Source of the DNA: Wenjunlia vitaminophila DSM 41686
GTDB lineage: Bacteria > Actinomycetota > Actinomycetes > Streptomycetales > Streptomycetaceae
Assembly: GCF_000380165.1 (NCBI RefSeq)
Contig: NZ_KB904662.1
Location: 1 to 64,000 of the forward strand
Reading direction: 5' to 3'
Length of the DNA stretch: 64,000 nt
The notes below the pieces were generated by a model. That model had not been told where the DNA came from, did not search any database, and saw nothing but the letters and a program-made list of their open reading frames with translations. Positions 4,483 to 53,178 of the stretch are shown piece after piece. The first letter of the stretch is position 1. Each line of letters opens with the position of its first letter. The translations under genes were made by a program, and so were the position numbers.

Positions 4483-6519
4483 TCAGAGCAGGTCAGGACG
4501 TTGCCACTCGTGGTCAAGGACGTGGTGGTCGAGGAAGTTCAGCACCGTCGAGTACCAGACCCGGGCGTTGTTCGGGGAGAGCACCCAGTGGTTCTCGTCG
4601 GGGAAGTAGAGGTACTTCGCCGGGACCCGGAGGCGCTGCAACTCCCGCCACAGCGCCATCGCCTCGCCCACCGGCACCCGGTAGTCCCGGGCCCCGTGGA
4701 TCACCAGCATCGGGGTGTTGATCTTCTCCGCGTGCAGGTGCGGGGAGTTCTCCTGGTAGCGCTCTCCGCTCTCCCCGGGGCGGCCGAAGATCCGGGAGAA
4801 GTCCCCGGGGCAGTCGGTGTCGCCGGCGAAACCGGCCAGGTTCCACAGGCTGGCGTGCGAGACGATGGCGCGGAAGCGGTCGGTGTGGCCGGCCACCCAG
4901 TTCGCCATGTAGCCGCCGTAGGAACCGCCGAGCAGCCCGGTGCGCTCCGCGTCGATGTCCCCCCGGGCCACCGCGGCGTCCGTCAGGGCGAGCACGTCCC
5001 GGTACGGCTGCTGGCCCCACCCGCTCCAACCCCGCTGGTGGTGGTGCTGGCCGTAGCCGGTGGACAGCGCCGGGTCGGGGAGGAGCACCGCGTAGCCCCT
5101 GGCGACCGCGGGCCAGGGGTTCCAACGCCAGTGCCAGGCGTTCCAGCTCGTCTGCGGGCCGCCGTGGACGAAGACCAGCAGCGGCGCGGGCCGGTCGGCG
5201 CGTGCCCGGTCGGGCAGGGCCAGCCAGCCGCGCAGCGCCACCCCGTCGTCCGCGGTGGTGTGCACCTCGGTGAGGGAACCGGGCAGGGCCACGGGACCGC
5301 CGGGGGCACGGAGCGGCACCGGCTCCTGGTCCACCCCGTCCGCGTCCAGGCGGACCGGCCGGGGTGGTGAGTCCACCGTGGAATGCAGCGCGTACACCGT
5401 TCCGCCGTCCGGGGAGACCACCACGTCGGTGTAGCAGCCGGACCGGGTGAGCCGGGTCCTGCTGCCGTCGGGGCGGAGCCGGAACACCGGGCGGTGGCCG
5501 TGGTCGTCGGCGGTGAAGAAGACGTCCCCGGTGGCTGCCGGCACCGGGGCGACCGGCCACAGGTCCAGGTCGGGGGTGAGGTCCCACCCGGCTCCGCCCT
5601 CCGGCCCGGCGGGGTCCAGGTCCAGGCGCCACAGGGTGACGTCCCCGGGCGCCTCCCGGGTGTTCCGGACGCCGCGCACGCACACCACCGAGCGACCGTC
5701 CCGGGTGAACACCGGCTCGGAGAAGGTGTGCTCGGGGGAGCCGAGCTGGGCCACCCGCTGGCCGGTGGTCGCGTCGGCGACCACCAGCGCGGCGCTCAGG
5801 TCGTGCGGCGGCCCCGACTCCAGCGAGACGTAGGCGACCAGTGACCCGTCGGGGGAGAGCGCGAGCCCGGTGGCTATCGGCCCCCGCTCGCCGACGTCCA
5901 CCGTCCGCCCGTGGCCGGCGCCGTCCGCGGGCCCGGTCACGAACACGTGGGGCACCCCGGGGCCGAGGTCGGCGTCCCAGAACCGCACGGGACCCGACTC
6001 GTGCAGGATCGCGGAGACCCCGGCCGAGCGGCGGTCGGCACGGCGCTTGGCGTCGTCCTCCGCGTCCTGCGCGCCGGGCAGCAACGAGGCGGCGAAGGCG
6101 AGGTGGCCGCTTCCCCCGGCCACCGCGTAGTCGTCGATGCCGCCGGCCCTGGCCACCAGCCGGGTGGCCTCGCCGCGCAGTGGCAGCCGCCACAGGGCGC
6201 GTCGGCCCTCGCCGGCCCCGTCGGCCTCGGCCTCCTGGCCGGGGGCCTTCCGGTCGGTCAGGAACAGCAGCGAACCGTCCGGCAGGAAGGCGGGAGCCGA
6301 TGCGCCCCGATCAGAGTTGGTCAGCCGCACCGCGTCGGCCCGGCCGGTCGGGTCCACTTCCCACAGCACGGGGACGTGCCGGGTTCCGTCGGGGGACAAC
6401 TCGGTGGCGCTGGTGACCAGTCGGGTGCCGTCCGGAGAGAGCGCGAGACCGGTCAGGCGCGGGAGGGCCACGAACGCGGACAGGTCGTGAAACACGGTCG
6501 CATCAGCCATGGTCATCAT
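4483..6519 (-). CDS. S9-family prolyl oligopeptidase / acylaminoacyl-peptidase
   Basis: This 678-aa protein has an N-terminal beta-propeller of repeated LALSPDGT-type blades (for example LTGLALSPDGTRL and FTRDGRSVV). A C-terminal alpha/beta-hydrolase domain starts near residue 410. The nucleophile serine is in GGSYGGYMANW, the catalytic His in PDENHWVL and the Asp in HGARDYRVP. No signal peptide is visible, so it is probably cytoplasmic. ATGs at 6519 and 6510 are both possible; a purine run lies ahead of the first. Substrate preference (prolyl versus acylaminoacyl) cannot be decided from sequence. Confidence 0.9.
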   Translation of the reverse strand: MMTMADATVFHDLSAFVALPRLTGLALSPDGTRLVTSATELSPDGTRHVPVLWEVDPTGRADAVRLTNSDRGASAPAFLPDGSLLFLTDRKAPGQEAEADGAGEGRRALWRLPLRGEATRLVARAGGIDDYAVAGGSGHLAFAASLLPGAQDAEDDAKRRADRRSAGVSAILHESGPVRFWDADLGPGVPHVFVTGPADGAGHGRTVDVGERGPIATGLALSPDGSLVAYVSLESGPPHDLSAALVVADATTGQRVAQLGSPEHTFSEPVFTRDGRSVVCVRGVRNTREAPGDVTLWRLDLDPAGPEGGAGWDLTPDLDLWPVAPVPAATGDVFFTADDHGHRPVFRLRPDGSRTRLTRSGCYTDVVVSPDGGTVYALHSTVDSPPRPVRLDADGVDQEPVPLRAPGGPVALPGSLTEVHTTADDGVALRGWLALPDRARADRPAPLLVFVHGGPQTSWNAWHWRWNPWPAVARGYAVLLPDPALSTGYGQHHHQRGWSGWGQQPYRDVLALTDAAVARGDIDAERTGLLGGSYGGYMANWVAGHTDRFRAIVSHASLWNLAGFAGDTDCPGDFSRIFGRPGESGERYQENSPHLHAEKINTPMLVIHGARDYRVPVGEAMALWRELQRLRVPAKYLYFPDENHWVLSPNNARVWYSTVLNFLDHHVLDHEWQRPDLL

Positions 6520-45536: not shown

Positions 45537-45989
45537 ATGGACGCGGTGGACAGGCAGCTCATCCAGGCGCTGCGGGAGAACGGCAGGGCGTCCTACGCCG
45601 AACTGGGACGGCTGGTGGGGCTCTCCGGTCCCAGTGTCACCGACCGGATCAACCGTCTGGAACAGGCCGGGGTGATCACCGGCTACCGGGCCACGGTCGC
45701 CCCGGCCGCGCTCGGGCTCGGTGTCACCGCCCTGGTGGGGGTGCAGCTCACCACCGCCGCCGACCACGAGGAGGTGGCCAGGAGGCTCCGGGACCTGGCG
45801 GAGATCGAGGACTGCTGGTTCATCGCCGGCGACGACTCGTTCATGCTCAAGGTGCGGGTCGGCGACGTGGACGGTCTCGAGCGGACCATCCACCGGCTGT
45901 CCGGCACCAAGGGCGTCTCCCGCACCCGGACCACCGTGGTGCTCTCCACCAAGTGGGAGAGCCGGGTCGGGGAGGTCCCGCAGGTCTGA
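45537..45989 (+). CDS. Lrp/AsnC-family transcriptional regulator
   Basis: This 150-aa protein has an N-terminal HTH, MDAVDRQLIQALRENGRASY with LGRLVGLSGPSVTDRINRLE. The C-terminal RAM ligand-binding domain includes GVTALVGVQLTTAADHEEV and DCWFIAGDDSFMLKVRVGDV. The ATG at 45537 follows GAGGAACGGAAGG at some distance. Its place between ubiX and mqnE is the same as in Streptomyces, which suggests it monitors an amino acid or pathway intermediate and controls menaquinone genes. Confidence 0.93.
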   Translation: MDAVDRQLIQALRENGRASYAELGRLVGLSGPSVTDRINRLEQAGVITGYRATVAPAALGLGVTALVGVQLTTAADHEEVARRLRDLAEIEDCWFIAGDDSFMLKVRVGDVDGLERTIHRLSGTKGVSRTRTTVVLSTKWESRVGEVPQV

Positions 45990-47970: not shown

Positions 47971-48297
47971 GTGAGCACCGTGACACCCACCAAACACGCC
48001 GCGCTCCGCTACACCGGAATGCGTCTGGGGATCTTCGTCCTGTGTTTCCTCGTCGTCTGGCTGCTCGCCTACGTCGAGGTCATCGAGGTCAACGGGGCCG
48101 AGGGGACGGTACTGCTGATCGGCGTCGCCGCCCTGCTCTCCGCGCCGATCAGCTACGTGGTGCTGAGCCGGCAGCGCGACGCGATGTCGGAGGAGATCGT
48201 GGACAAGGTCACCCAGACCAAGCGGCGGCTGGCCGAGGACCGCACCCGGGAGGACGCGGCGCAGGACGCCGACCGGCTCCGGCCCCAGAAGAGCTGA
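47971..48297 (+). CDS. small two-TM membrane protein (DUF4229-like)
   Basis: This 108-aa protein starts with GTG after GAGAAG. Helices: MRLGIFVLCFLVVWLLAYVE and GTVLLIGVAALLSAPISYVV. A charged C-terminal helix follows: LSRQRDAMSEEIVDKVTQTK. It matches the DUF4229 arrangement common in actinobacteria, often near menaquinone genes. Function unknown. Confidence 0.85.
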   Translation: MSTVTPTKHAALRYTGMRLGIFVLCFLVVWLLAYVEVIEVNGAEGTVLLIGVAALLSAPISYVVLSRQRDAMSEEIVDKVTQTKRRLAEDRTREDAAQDADRLRPQKS

Positions 48298-48597
48298 CCC
48301 GCCGGCCACCGACCCACCGCGAGCAGCGGAACGACCGCGTCGCACGCCGCCCACCAGTGGTCGGAGGTGGCCGACCTGTGTCGGACAGCGACACTCAGGT
48401 CCCTGAGCCTCGGCTCGGAGGGCGTCAGCACCCCCACCTGACGGCTGTGGGCCCACCGTCATCCCTGCTGGAACGGGGATGCGAACTCCTCGCTCGGGGA
48501 CGACGCCACCTGGGGCGACCCGGACGACGAATCCCGGTGGTGCGCCGCGCCCGTGCTCGGGCGGGCCCGCCCCGGAAGACCATCTCAAAGTATTGCT
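48298..48597. other. gene-free stretch before the leader-peptide promoter
   Basis: About 300 bases without a convincing reading frame on either strand. It contains short GC-rich dyads only. It may hold the terminator of the small membrane-protein gene, but no strong hairpin was found. Confidence 0.4.
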
Positions 48598-48627
48598 TTG
48601 ATGAACCCAAAGCCTCAGTGGTAATCT
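48598..48627 (+). promoter_or_regulatory. promoter of the leader peptide / symporter transcript
   Basis: TTGATG (48598-48603) and TAATCT (48622-48627) are separated by 18 nt, a good vegetative-type promoter in an otherwise GC-rich setting. The expected start site, about 7 nt after the -10, falls at about 48634, directly at the ATG of the leader ORF (48635). The mRNA would therefore be leaderless. Confidence 0.6.
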
Positions 48628-48634
48628 CCACGGC

Positions 48635-48736
48635 ATGACGACAGTACTGACCCACCGAGCCACGGCGGACGCACCGCTCGTGGCGCGGCTCGAGGTCGAC
48701 TTCTGTCGCCGGGTGTCGGCTGCCTGTCGCGGCTGA
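48635..48736 (+). CDS. putative cysteine-type leader peptide (33 aa)
   Basis: The peptide reads MTTVLTHRATADAPLVARLE then VDFCRRVSAACRG. It matches the pattern of actinobacterial 'putative leader peptides' (R-x-H/E-x-D-L/F-x-R-V-x-S-A-x-C) found before sulfur-assimilation and thiol-transport genes. Two cysteines lie near the end. It is too short for routine gene calling. With no room for a ribosome site after the predicted start of transcription, it is probably translated leaderlessly. It sits 304 nt before the DAACS symporter, consistent with attenuation by cysteine supply. Confidence 0.65.
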   Translation: MTTVLTHRATADAPLVARLEVDFCRRVSAACRG

Positions 48737-48766
48737 GTCCGCGCCCCGCCCCGGCGTTGTCGTCAC

Positions 48767-48784
48767 GGCCCGACTGATCGGGCC
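48767..48784 (+). terminator. attenuator-like hairpin after the leader peptide
   Basis: GGCCCGA (48767-48773) pairs perfectly with TCGGGCC (48778-48784) around CTGA, 30 nt after the leader stop. Further downstream, GTCACC at about 48892 can pair with GGGTGAC at about 48928, and other dyads overlap it, so alternative folds are possible up to the symporter start. Role in attenuation is inference. Confidence 0.4.
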
Positions 48785-49040
48785 CCACCCCCCTCGACAT
48801 CCACCTCGGTGATCCACGGCGTGTCGGCCACGGGACCGTCTCAGGGACGGCCGTGACCGGAGGCCGTGCCGAGCCCCTCCCGACCCACCGTCACCGGCGC
48901 CCACCCGGCGCGCCCACCGCGCCCGGCGCGGGTGACGTGCGTCGGAGCGGCGCAGTGGCTGTCGTGGGTCGGGCGCGACCGCGGGGCGGCGGCACCTCCC
49001 GTTCCCCGTCCCCCCCGTACCACGCACCCGGAGTGTGCCC

Positions 49041-50360
49041 GTGTCGTCCTCCACCACCGTCAAGCCCCCCAGTCCCCTCGCCGGCCTGCGCCGGACCCCG
49101 TTCTGGGCGCAGATCATCGGCGGCCTCGTGCTCGGTGTCGTCCTCGGCCTCGTCGCCCGCGAGTACCACGTGGACTGGCTCACCGAGACCCTGACCAGAA
49201 CCGGCGACATCTTCGTGCAGTTGCTCAAGCTCGCCGTCGCCCCGCTGGTCTTCACCGCGATCCTGGTCAGCATCGCCAACCTCCGCAACGTGACCAACGC
49301 CGCCCGGCTGGCCGGCCGCACCCTGCTGTGGTTCCTCGCCACCTCGCTGATCGCGGTGACCATCGGCATCGTCATCGGCGTGCTCACCGACCCCGGCTCC
49401 GGCACCGGGCTGCGCCCGTCCGACGGCGAGCGGGTGGACGGCGTCTCCGCGTCCTGGGTGGACTTCCTCACCGGGATCGTCCCCACCGACGTGATCACCC
49501 CGTTCACCGAACTCAACGTGCTCCAGATCGTCTTCCTCGCCGTGGTGATCGGTGTCGCCGTGCTGAAGGTCGGCGACCGCGCCGAACCGGTCCTCACCCT
49601 CAGCCGCACCGTCCTGGAACTGGTCCAGAAGGCCCTGTGGTGGGTCATCCGGCTGGCGCCCCTCGGCACCCTCGGCCTGATCGGCAAGTCGGTGGCCACC
49701 TACGGCTGGGACCTGCTCGAGCCCATGGCGACGTTCACCGTCGACGTCTACGTCGGGTGCGCGCTGGTGCTGTTCGGCGTCTACCCGCTGCTGCTGTGGC
49801 TGGTGGCGAAGGTCAACCCGCTGCACTTCTTCCAGGGCGCCTGGCCCGCCATCCAGCTCGCGTTCGTCTCCCGTTCCTCCGTGGGCACCATGCCGGTCAC
49901 CCAGCGGTCGGTGGAGCGCCTCGGCGTGCAGCGGGAGTACGCGGCCTTCGCGGTCCCGTTCGGCGCGACCACCAAGATGGACGGTTGCGCCGCGATCTAC
50001 CCGGCGCTGGCCGCGATCTTCGTCGCCCAGGTCTTCGGAGTGAGCCTCGGCATCGGCGACTACCTGTTGATCGCCTTCGTCTCCGTGGTCGGCTCGGCCG
50101 CCACCGCGGGGCTGACCGGCGCCATCGTGATGCTGACCCTGACCCTGTCCACGCTGGGCCTGCCGCTGGAGGGCGTGGGCCTGCTGCTGGCCATCGACCC
50201 GGTGCTTGACATGGTGCGCACCGCCACGAACGTCGCGGGTCAGGCGGCCGTACCGGTGCTGGTGGCCTCCCGCGAGGGCATCCTGGACCGCGAGGCCTTC
50301 GCGGGGGTCAGTAGCTCCCCGGTGGAGGAGGCACCGGTCCGCGAGCCGGTCGCCGTCTGA
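49041..50360 (+). CDS. dicarboxylate/amino acid:cation symporter (DAACS family)
   Basis: This is a 439-aa protein with eight TM helices and two hairpins. Landmarks: LVFTAILVSIANLRNVTNA, LQIVFLAVVIGVAVLK, the Ser-rich hairpin SRSSVGTMPVTQRSVERLGV, PFGATTKMDGCAAIYPALAA, and AIDPVLDMVRTATNVAGQAA with the DMxRTxxNVxG cation-binding motif. GTG at 49041 follows GGAG at 7 nt; GTG at 49035 is too close. Members carry glutamate, dicarboxylates or cystine. The Cys-type leader peptide upstream makes a cystine transporter plausible. Confidence 0.88.
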   Translation: MSSSTTVKPPSPLAGLRRTPFWAQIIGGLVLGVVLGLVAREYHVDWLTETLTRTGDIFVQLLKLAVAPLVFTAILVSIANLRNVTNAARLAGRTLLWFLATSLIAVTIGIVIGVLTDPGSGTGLRPSDGERVDGVSASWVDFLTGIVPTDVITPFTELNVLQIVFLAVVIGVAVLKVGDRAEPVLTLSRTVLELVQKALWWVIRLAPLGTLGLIGKSVATYGWDLLEPMATFTVDVYVGCALVLFGVYPLLLWLVAKVNPLHFFQGAWPAIQLAFVSRSSVGTMPVTQRSVERLGVQREYAAFAVPFGATTKMDGCAAIYPALAAIFVAQVFGVSLGIGDYLLIAFVSVVGSAATAGLTGAIVMLTLTLSTLGLPLEGVGLLLAIDPVLDMVRTATNVAGQAAVPVLVASREGILDREAFAGVSSSPVEEAPVREPVAV

Positions 50361-50380
50361 CGTCAGGCGGCCCCTCGGGC

Positions 50381-50431
50381 CGCGGAGCCCCGGGCACCGG
50401 TGCGGACACCACCGGAGCCCGGGGCTCCGCG
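50381..50431 (+). terminator. terminator after the symporter
   Basis: CGCGGAGCCCCGGGC (50381-50395) pairs perfectly over 15 bp with GCCCGGGGCTCCGCG (50417-50431). The 21-nt loop has its own weak dyad. It is 20 nt after the stop. Confidence 0.8.
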
Positions 50432-50625
50432 CTGTCGGGAACGGGCCGGAGCCGCCCGGCTCGGCACACCCGTCGTTTCCCCGACGCGGTGAGGACCGAC
50501 CGCCGCCACTAGCTCCGAGTCGCCGGGTCCCTGATCAGCGCCAGGTGGAACGCGGCGGTCCACCGATGAGTCCACCGTCCTCGAACGGTCTACCCAGCGA
50601 CACGACCGTTCTCGACAGGGGTGCC

Positions 50626-51192: not shown

Positions 51193-53178
51193 TCACCTCC
51201 CAGCCGTCCGCGCGACGTGCAGATTCCGGCGGATGACCGTGGTCATGGGGTGGTTGGGGCCGAGGACACGCAATGCGGCACTGAGGGTGGCCTCGTACAG
51301 GGGGATGGCGCGGTCCAGGTCTCCGGCTTCCTGGTAGGCGGTGGCGAGGTTGTTGCGGCTGGTCAGGGTGTGGGGGTGGTTGGGGCCGAGGACACGCAAT
51401 GCGGCACTGAGGGTGGCCTCGTACAGGGGGATGGCGCGGTCCAGGTCTCCCGCCCCCCGGTAGGCGGCGGCGAGGTTGTTACGGCTGCTCAGGGTGTCGG
51501 GGTGGTCAGAGCCGAGGATGCGTTCGCGGTCGGTGAGGGTGGCCTGGTGCAGGGGGATGGCGCGGTCCAGGTCGCCCGCTTCCCGGTAGGCGCTGGCGAG
51601 GTTGTTGCGGCTGGTCAGGGTGTGGAGGTGGTCAGGGCCGAGGACACGCAATGCGGCACTGAGGGTGGCCTCGTACAGGGGGATGGCGCGGTCCAGGTCT
51701 CCCGCCCCCCGGTAGGCGCTGGCGAGATTGTTGCGGCTGGTCAGGGTACCGGGGTGGTCAGGGCCGTTGAGGCGGATGCTTGTCTGGTGTGCGCGTTCGG
51801 CGTAGGCGACGGCCTGCTGGTGCTGGCCCTGGCCACTGAGGAACCAACCGGTCCAGTCGAGGAGGTGAGCGGTGTCCTGGGTGTCCTGATCGGGTGTGGT
51901 GAGGCTGGTGTGGGCGTGGACGTGGGGGAGCAGAGCCCTCCAGCGGGCCCAGGTGCCTACGTCGGTTGCGGGATCGGTGGTGGGGAGAGCGATGTGCAGG
52001 AGGGCGGCGGCTCGCTCGCGGGCGTGTGTGATGGTGTCCTCGGTGTTGTGGGCGTTGGGGGTGCGGGCGACTGCCTGGACGAGACGGTGCACGCTGACGC
52101 TGTTCTCGGTGAGGGTGATCATGCTGTAGGCGGCCAGCGTCCCCAGCGCCTCATTCACCGCGAGCGCATCGTTGGCAGGGGCGGTGAGGACGTCTCGGGG
52201 GAGTCGGTCGGGGGCGAGCCAGGCCAGGACGGAGAGCATCGCGACTGCGAGAGGGGTGTGGGTGGCGATGGTCTCCAGGGTCAGGCGCCACGTGCGGGCG
52301 ATGGTGCGTTCGTGCTGTCCGAGAACGGCGGGGGTGGCGTGGATCCGGGCCGGGTACTCGCGGAGCAACTGGTGGTAGTCGCTGGCGCTGATCTGATTCC
52401 GGGCGATGTACGCTCCGGCTTGCTCCAGCGCCAGGGGCAGGCAGCCCAGTTCCGTGGCCAGTTCGGTGAGGGCGGGGCGATGACCGGGGGCGGTGTGACC
52501 GCTGGCACGGGCCAACAGGTCGGTGGCGGAGTCCAGGGTCAACACGTCGATGGCCACGGGGTGGGCCAGACGGTGCCATCCGACGGCGCGGCGGCTGGTG
52601 ATCAACACTCGTCCGGCGTCCAACTGCCCCAGGTACGGCTCGAGGTCGGCGGGGTCCTCGACGTTGTCCAGCACCAGCAACCAACCGGGGTGCGTCTGGA
52701 GCCAGGTCAGCGCCCACGTGACATTCGTAGCCGTGTCGGTGCCGGCCTGGCCGTGCAGCCGCTCAGCCAACGCGGCGAGGCCGGCGGTGAGGTTCTGCGG
52801 GCTGTCCGCGGTGATCCACCAGGTCAGGGTGTACGCGGAGCGGTGGGTACGGGCATAGTCCAGGGCGAGAGTGGACTTGCCCACACCACCGAGACCGTGA
52901 ATGGCCTGGGTGATGACACTGTTTCCGTCGTGCACCGCCTCGTGCAGGAGAGCAAGGTCGTCATCCCGGCCCAGGATGGGGCCGTGGAACGGCGGAAGGT
53001 TGTGTGCGCCAGTTGTCGCCGGAACGGATGCCGCGGGCGGCAGGGACGGCATGGGCTGGTAGTAGTGGTAGGCGTCGCCGGTGTTCAGGGTGCAGGCTGA
53101 GCCGACGGCGGTGGACCTGGTGGCGTTGGCGTGGATGCCGCCCGGCGGTGGTGTGAAGGAGCCGGGCGGCGCGGTCAG
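51193..53178 (-). CDS. STAND NTPase (NB-ARC) with TPR repeats, copy 1; predicted -1 frameshift product
   Basis: Coordinates give the -1-frame part from the shift site. The first ATG in this frame is at 53052 (620 aa). Counting from that Met: P-loop HGLGGVGKSTLALDY at about 53-66, Walker B GWLLVLDNVEDPADL, RNBS-like VLITSRRAVGWHRL, GLPL-type LGCLPLALEQAGAYI, MHD-region SVSVHRLVQAVAR. Then four full 42-aa TPR units (SRNNLASAYRGAGDLDRAIP) and a partial fifth. Between the shift site and 53052 the frame encodes LTAPPG...GGIHANATRSTAVG, shared with copy 2 but lacking a standard start. Fusion to the upstream ORF would give 810 aa. Such proteins often act in phage defence or signalling; role inferred. 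Confidence 0.85.
   Translation of the reverse strand: MTAPPGSFTPPPGGIHANATRSTAVGSACTLNTGDAYHYYQPMPSLPPAASVPATTGAHNLPPFHGPILGRDDDLALLHEAVHDGNSVITQAIHGLGGVGKSTLALDYARTHRSAYTLTWWITADSPQNLTAGLAALAERLHGQAGTDTATNVTWALTWLQTHPGWLLVLDNVEDPADLEPYLGQLDAGRVLITSRRAVGWHRLAHPVAIDVLTLDSATDLLARASGHTAPGHRPALTELATELGCLPLALEQAGAYIARNQISASDYHQLLREYPARIHATPAVLGQHERTIARTWRLTLETIATHTPLAVAMLSVLAWLAPDRLPRDVLTAPANDALAVNEALGTLAAYSMITLTENSVSVHRLVQAVARTPNAHNTEDTITHARERAAALLHIALPTTDPATDVGTWARWRALLPHVHAHTSLTTPDQDTQDTAHLLDWTGWFLSGQGQHQQAVAYAERAHQTSIRLNGPDHPGTLTSRNNLASAYRGAGDLDRAIPLYEATLSAALRVLGPDHLHTLTSRNNLASAYREAGDLDRAIPLHQATLTDRERILGSDHPDTLSSRNNLAAAYRGAGDLDRAIPLYEATLSAALRVLGPNHPHTLTSRNNLATAYQEAGDLDRAIPLYEATLSAALRVLGPNHPMTTVIRRNLHVARTAGR
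51236..51775 (-). repeat. 126-bp tandem repeats encoding TPR units, copy 1
   Basis: Four nearly identical 126-bp units (42 codons each) repeat, marked by CTCGTACAGGGGGATGGCGC at about 51295, 51420 and 51668 and a variant between them. High DNA identity between units indicates recent unit amplification or gene conversion. Confidence 0.75.

What the first reader, a model, noticed from the sequence alone, without database searches (positions are those of the whole stretch)
48598..48736. Leaderless cysteine-type leader peptide ahead of a DAACS symporter
Seen: a 33-codon ORF ending VDFCRRVSAACRG starts at the predicted transcription start of a TTGATG-18-TAATCT promoter. Known: short peptides with R-x-H-x-D-L-x-R-V-x-S-A-x-C occur before sulfur-assimilation genes in actinobacteria and are thought to sense cysteine. 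Inference: the symporter is a cystine/thiol importer under ribosome-mediated attenuation.
Basis: partly seen in the sequence, partly recalled or inferred. Interest (0 to 1): 0.62.

Follow-up and report, generated by a model that had tools for sequence, protein, structure and literature searches.

The report
Cysteine leader peptide before cystine-type symporter
A tiny cysteine-containing gene sits at the very start of the message for an amino-acid importer, is conserved before the same importer in most related Streptomyces genomes, and most likely lets the ribosome switch the importer on when cysteine runs short.

Summary
The 33-codon ORF (48635-48736) starts 7 nt after the -10 of a TTGATG-18-TAATCT promoter. 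Of 80 named orthologous loci, 72 carry a leader ending (PLVAR)LHVDLCRCMSAVC(CR)* before the same symporter, nearly always with ATG/GTG 7 nt after a TAnnnT box. The window's PLVARLEVDFCRRVSAAC is a divergent member (His->Glu, Leu->Phe): 42 bits on a profile of relatives, next best of 103,970 window peptides -6. Codon-position substitution shows selection on the peptide. The symporter forms its own clade but shares signature residues with the cystine/S-sulfocysteine symporter TcyP. In Streptomyces the leader's Cys-Arg-Cys codons are complementary to a conserved block after the stop, itself complementary to a block that can pair with the Shine-Dalgarno region: an erm-like translational attenuator. 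The window lacks a recognisable version of the first helix. Best reading: a Cys-tRNA-sensing leaderless leader controlling a cystine-type importer, a new target for a leader class known from mycobacteria. Cysteine response, substrate and RNA switch are untested.

The parts
48596..48612 (.). Palindrome CTTTGATGAACCCAAAG overlapping the -35; candidate operator
   Evidence: Only copy of CTTTGRNNNNNYCAAAG in the 6.4 Mb genome; CTTTG-n7-CAAAG with at most 1 mismatch in 76 of 80 orthologous loci; kept where the leader is lost
48598..48603 (+). -35 element TTGATG
   Evidence: read directly; position conserved in relatives
48622..48627 (+). -10 element TAATCT (TAACGT/TAGCGT in relatives)
   Evidence: 7 nt before the leader ATG in the window and nearly all relatives
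48635..48736 (+). Leaderless 33-codon leader peptide ORF
48704..48706 (+). first regulatory Cys codon (TGT)
   Evidence: Cys at this place in most relatives
48725..48727 (+). second regulatory Cys codon (TGT)
   Evidence: Cys at this place in all strict-pattern relatives
48991..48999 (+). GGCACCTCC, possible partner of the Shine-Dalgarno region
   Evidence: predicted pairing with 49030-49039; energy not better than dinucleotide shuffles (p 0.51)
49030..49033 (+). Shine-Dalgarno GGAG of the symporter gene
49041..50360 (+). DAACS/SDF symporter gene (listed from GTG 49035; GTG 49041 preferred), TcyP-like residues in HP1, TM7 and TM8
   Evidence: PF00375 E 2e-107; only SDF family member in the genome
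45537..45989 (+). Lrp/AsnC-family regulator, syntenic in relatives; a lead for the protein that binds the palindrome
   Evidence: PF01037/PF13404; present in 67 of 80 orthologous loci

Best explanation
The transcript starts at the A of ATG 48635, so a 70S ribosome begins directly on the leader. If Cys-tRNA is charged, the ribosome passes the Cys codons and leaves; the RNA folds so that the symporter's ribosome-binding site is poorly available, and little importer is made. If Cys-tRNA is short, the ribosome stalls on the Cys codons, the leader's Cys-Arg-Cys segment (region 1) cannot pair with the block after the stop (region 2), region 2 pairs with region 3, and the Shine-Dalgarno region (region 4) is released. 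The importer then brings in cystine or a related sulfur amino acid such as S-sulfocysteine. A regulator acting on the palindrome at the -35 adds a second input. Shown here by computation: the leader, its conservation and selection, leaderless spacing, the palindrome, and complementarity of regions 1, 2 and 3 in Streptomyces. Inferred: cysteine response, substrate, identity of the regulator, and the switch in the window's own, longer (about 300 nt) leader-symporter gap.
For: Conservation of leader plus symporter in Streptomyces, Kitasatospora (different Cys-bearing peptide), other families of the order and Nonomuraea. Substitutions per codon in the 12-codon HVDL..C block are 0.10/0.08/0.21 at positions 1/2/3, against 0.63-0.65 just after the stop. 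Relatives' leaders hit NCBIfam NF042934 'putative leader peptide' at E 1.6e-5 to 1.2e-3, three also a mycobacterial Cys-rich leader model, NF042936 or NF042933. Leader UGCCGCUGUAUG complements CAUGCAGCGGCG about 8 nt after the stop in Streptomyces; region 2 pairs with GCCGC downstream, with 10 two-sided changes, covariation 0.137 against 0.091 shuffled, 1 of 500. Masking region 1 as a stalled ribosome would moves mean 2:3 pairing from 0.02 to 0.42 and 3:4 from 0.54 to 0.22 in 39 sequences. TcyP-like residues. In-genome control: HVDL leader about 400 nt before a NIR/SIR reductase ORF.
Against: Window leader has only two, non-adjacent Cys codons, deviates at His and Leu, and has no NCBIfam hit. 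Its region 1:2 helix is not found above chance (p 0.45 and 0.83) and its SD-hiding stem is no stronger than in shuffles (p 0.51; mean p 0.44 over 72 loci). In the window model, masking the first Cys codons makes the SD more, not less, paired. Helix 1:2 never varies on both sides, so covariation neither supports nor refutes it. SD opens on masking in only 16 of 39 sequences, and less in 5. Some genomes have lost the leader and keep the gene.
Confidence: 0.68

Rival explanations
1. Same leader, but the output is Rho-dependent transcription termination: efficient passage of the leader exposes the C-rich stretch to Rho, and stalling changes this.
For: No intrinsic terminator; stretch between leader and symporter is C-rich (C 0.45/G 0.33 in the window, 0.44/0.27 in relatives); Rho suggested for mycobacterial cys leaders lacking terminators (PMC1262725).
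Against: Region 2 and 3 blocks are conserved near-exactly and lie between leader and SD, more than Rho loading needs; M. smegmatis Cys leaders are reported as translational attenuators (cited in PMC9031893, PMC13236596).
Confidence: 0.2
2. The peptide is a leftover or only a translation-initiation aid; control is by the protein that binds the palindrome at the -35.
For: Palindrome conserved in 76 of 80 loci, kept where the leader is lost and the symporter itself starts 6-7 nt after the same -10 (L009, L014, L077).
Against: Peptide sequence, including Cys positions, is under selection in most genomes; Kitasatospora changed the peptide but kept Cys codons.
Confidence: 0.1
3. The symporter carries aspartate/glutamate-like or other acidic solutes, and the Cys leader couples it to general amino-acid or redox state rather than to cystine.
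For: R276, D394 and R397 of GltPh (my numbering from memory) are kept; pairwise BLASTP favours GltP (176 bits) over TcyP (155); best solved relative is an aspartate transporter.
Against: TcyP has the same residues; the TM7 one-residue insertion GCA..YPA and the Pro in [DE]PxxDMxRTAxNV are shared only with TcyP among those compared; a Cys leader before an Asp importer has no obvious logic.
Confidence: 0.25
4. In the window the leader is decaying (His->Glu, Leu->Phe, two Cys codons, long gap) and no longer regulates.
For: Divergence from all relatives at the two conserved places; no conserved region 2.
Against: ORF, both main Cys codons, palindrome, -35/-10 and 7-nt spacing all intact.
Confidence: 0.2

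Closest known systems
Leaderless polycysteine short ORFs of mycobacteria (Ms4527A/Ms5788A families; Canestrari et al. 2020; NCBIfam NF042936, NF042933, NF042934)
   Same: Leaderless start, Cys codons near the stop, same HVDL-type core in relatives, placed before sulfur genes, proposed ribosome-stalling control of a downstream ribosome-binding site
   Different: Target is a DAACS symporter; Cys codons spaced rather than a tract in the window; window peptide not recognised by the models; palindrome over the -35 in addition
Candidate cys leader peptides of Actinobacteria (Seliverstov et al. 2005, PMC1262725)
   Same: Short Cys-bearing ORF, no terminator hairpin downstream
   Different: Those precede cys operons and cbs of Mycobacterium, Propionibacterium and Bifidobacterium
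E. coli TcyP/YdjN, cystine and S-sulfocysteine symporter
   Same: SDF family; SRSS in HP1, GAT...GCA..YPA in TM7, [DE]PxxDMxRTAxNVxG in TM8
   Different: About 32% identity, separate clade, KMDG instead of GQNG; no leader peptide known to me there
ermC-type translational attenuators (from my own knowledge)
   Same: Logic of alternating helices 1:2, 2:3, 3:4 around a leader peptide
   Different: Signal would be Cys-tRNA, not an antibiotic; leaderless start; weak 3:4 helix

Membership tests
Actinobacterial Cys-type leader peptide (NF042934 cis_reg_atten) | Profile match over curated cut-off (27 bits) | tested here: not met
   Window: no hit at E up to 10; relatives 18.4-24.4 bits
Actinobacterial Cys-type leader peptide (NF042934 cis_reg_atten) | RxHxDLx(R)..(S/T)AxC core | tested here: inconclusive
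   Complete in relatives; window RLEVDFCRRVSAAC, two conserved residues changed, yet 42 bits on a relatives' profile
Actinobacterial Cys-type leader peptide (NF042934 cis_reg_atten) | Leaderless initiation codon | tested here: met
   By promoter spacing only: -10 ends 7 nt before the ATG, conserved
Actinobacterial Cys-type leader peptide (NF042934 cis_reg_atten) | Cysteine-dependent expression of the downstream gene | not testable with these tools
   needs experiment
DAACS/SDF symporter | PF00375 over gathering score | tested here: met
   360 bits, cut-off 27.9
TcyP orthologue | Groups with TcyP in a tree | tested here: not met
   Own clade 99/99; TcyP clade 100/99; order of groups unresolved
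TcyP orthologue | TcyP-specific residues of the transport core | tested here: met
   GCA..YPA insertion, SRSS, DP..DM.RTA.NV.GQ; absent together from GltP, DctA, SstT and a GltT-like protein
TcyP orthologue | Cystine or S-sulfocysteine uptake | not testable with these tools
   needs transport assay
Classical transcription attenuator | Intrinsic terminator between leader and gene | tested here: not met
   none found in 48200-50600
Translational attenuator with hidden ribosome-binding site | Alternative conserved helices that hide or free the SD | tested here: inconclusive
   Regions 1, 2, 3 conserved and complementary in Streptomyces; SD helix no better than shuffles, not resolved in the window

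The most novel reading that the evidence does not exclude
A widespread, undescribed dual switch: a ribosome sensing Cys-tRNA on a leaderless peptide, and a dedicated regulator on a near-private palindrome at the same promoter, jointly control a new clade of cystine-type DAACS importers in Streptomycetaceae; some lineages have dropped the ribosomal sensor and run the importer itself as the leaderless ORF from the same promoter.
Probability: 0.45. Interest if true: 0.65.

Novelty: new member of a known kind. Interest (0 to 1): 0.47.

Why it matters
If true, cysteine import in Streptomyces joins the set of genes that ribosomes themselves regulate through leaderless Cys peptides, and an uncharacterised transporter clade gains a likely substrate. 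The natural leader deletions at an otherwise unchanged promoter make the role of the peptide directly testable.

Tried and rejected
Rfam search of the region: nothing credible. Generic promoter/terminator scan: nothing. Pfam and NCBIfam on the 33-aa peptide: no hit. First scans of minus-strand relatives read them in the wrong orientation; redone correctly. A first own-genome leader scan printed nothing because of file naming; redone. Covariation for helix 1:2: none, the pairs are nearly invariant. SD sequestration by energy: not above shuffles, so it is argued only from conserved blocks. Tree for TcyP kinship: separate clade, with SstT long-branch attraction; kinship argued from the shared insertion only. 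Neighbours of homologs in Ensifer, Phyllobacterium, Tsukamurella and Sphingomonas gave no substrate clue. Lrp/AsnC as binder of the palindrome: a lead only; not found within the fetched flanks (5 kb or less) in Kitasatospora loci that keep the palindrome. The Canestrari 2020 paper itself is not held; I rely on citing papers and memory. No paper found in the held library describes this leader before the symporter.

Full report
Observation. The stretch reads as described: TTGATG (48598-48603), 18 nt, TAATCT (48622-48627), 7 nt, ATG at 48635, and a 33-codon ORF with Cys codons at 48704 and 48725 and TGA at 48734-48736. The symporter gene follows about 300 nt later; the GGAG at 49030-49033 favours GTG 49041 as its start. 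The window is part of a 6.4 Mb genome whose relatives with the symporter are mostly Streptomycetaceae.

Conservation. The symporter has 66-78% identical orthologs in the family and order. Of the 80 best named loci (Streptomyces, Kitasatospora, Embleya, Actinacidiphila, Mangrovactinospora and others), 72 hold a short ORF with the core HVDLxR..SAxC that stops 44-258 nt before the matched part of the symporter. The other eight: one with a degenerate leader whose frame runs on (L067), four Kitasatospora-type loci with a different but Cys-bearing leader (L060, L066, L068, L070), and three without such a leader (L075, L077, L092). After correct orientation, the wider set of relatives also shows it, including other families of the order, as does Nonomuraea. 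The genes ubiX, Lrp/AsnC, mqnE, GNAT and DUF4229 lie next to leader and symporter in 64-72 of 80 loci, each. A profile from the relatives picks the window's peptide out of 103,970 peptides by 48 bits, and codon positions differ as expected for a selected peptide.

Promoter. In relatives the promoter reads CTTTGAGnnnCTCAAAG..gtgTTAACGT-7nt-ATG. The constant 7-nt distance from the -10 to the ATG/GTG argues for a leaderless message. The strongest confirmation is natural: in L009, L014 and L077 the leader is gone and the symporter's own ATG sits 6-7 nt after the same -10. The palindrome over the -35 occurs once in the window's genome; in relatives about half of its copies are at this symporter, and the overall count elsewhere is about that of the reversed-pattern control. 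With at most one mismatch it is present in 76 of 80 loci. It is probably the site of a dedicated regulator, unidentified.

Leader class. Relatives' leaders match NCBIfam NF042934 'putative leader peptide' (E 1.6e-5 to 1.2e-3, under the curated cut-off), and some the mycobacterial Cys-rich leader models; the window's own peptide does not. In the same genome a leader MPSAGTDLVGRLHVDLGRMSSAICPVN* lies about 400 nt before an ORF with nitrite/sulphite reductase domains, which supports the link of this peptide class with sulfur genes. Such leaders in M. smegmatis are reported to act by cysteine-dependent translational attenuation (Canestrari et al. 2020, as cited in PMC9031893, PMC9094748 and PMC13236596), and cys leaders without terminators were predicted in other Actinobacteria (PMC1262725). 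The S. lividans reannotation lists leaders for other amino acids (PMC8079986).

RNA switch. In Streptomyces the codons Cys-Arg-Cys-Met (UGC CGC UGU AUG) are complementary to CAUGCAGCGGCG shortly after the stop. The block CAGCGGC (region 2) and a downstream block GCCGC(A/U)C (region 3) are the best conserved non-coding stretches between leader and Shine-Dalgarno. Regions 1:2 pair in 91% of cells but hardly vary; 2:3 shows two-sided changes above shuffles; region 3 can pair with the Shine-Dalgarno region in two registers. With region 1 masked, the ensemble shifts from 1:2 plus 3:4 to 2:3. Caution: these are related GC-rich sequences; the SD duplex is no stronger than in dinucleotide shuffles, and the window's longer spacer shows no such clear switch.

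Transporter. It is the genome's only SDF-family symporter. Its tree clade, with homologs in Arthrobacter, Tsukamurella, rhizobia and sphingomonads, is separate from TcyP, GltP and DctA. It shares with TcyP (annotated as cystine/sulfocysteine symporter; see also PMC10213525) a one-residue insertion in TM7 (GAT...[DN]GCA..YPA), SRSS in HP1 and [DE]PxxDMxRTAxNVxG in TM8; GltP, DctA, SstT and a GltT-like protein lack this combination. By my recollection of GltPh numbering, the changed residues (N310->K, D405->Q) are sodium-site residues that TcyP has also changed, so coupling may not be the GltPh type. A cystine-type substrate is thus the best guess, at about 55-60%.

Verdict. A genuine, conserved leaderless Cys leader; known class, new target; probable dual control. 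Mechanism well motivated in relatives, open in the window.

Noticed in passing
window 48596-48612: Palindrome CTTTGATGAACCCAAAG over the -35, conserved across Streptomycetaceae at this gene; probable site of an unidentified regulator.
   Followed up: partly
L009, L014, L077 (and by translation L092): Natural loss of the leader: the symporter ATG itself sits 6-7 nt after the conserved -10, giving a probably leaderless symporter mRNA.
   Followed up: yes
L060, L066, L068, L070, L017: Kitasatospora-type loci keep promoter and palindrome but encode a different Cys-bearing leader without HVDL.
   Followed up: partly
L075, just upstream of position 5001: A Cys-rich short ORF (MSSAGECCPCPR...) appears to overlap the symporter's own ribosome-binding site and start.
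   Followed up: no
L114 (G000:C24:51345-54364): Second HVDL leader in the same genome, about 400 nt before a nitrite/sulphite reductase-domain ORF.
   Followed up: yes
window 45537-45989: Lrp/AsnC regulator in conserved synteny with mqnE and the symporter; could be the palindrome-binding protein.
   Followed up: partly
window 49041-50360: KMDG in place of NMDG and Gln in place of the last sodium-site Asp: ion coupling of this symporter clade may differ from GltPh.
   Followed up: no
window 51193-53052, - strand: 619-aa ORF with an NTP-binding-like GGVGKST motif and C-terminal tandem repeats of tetratricopeptide look.
   Followed up: no
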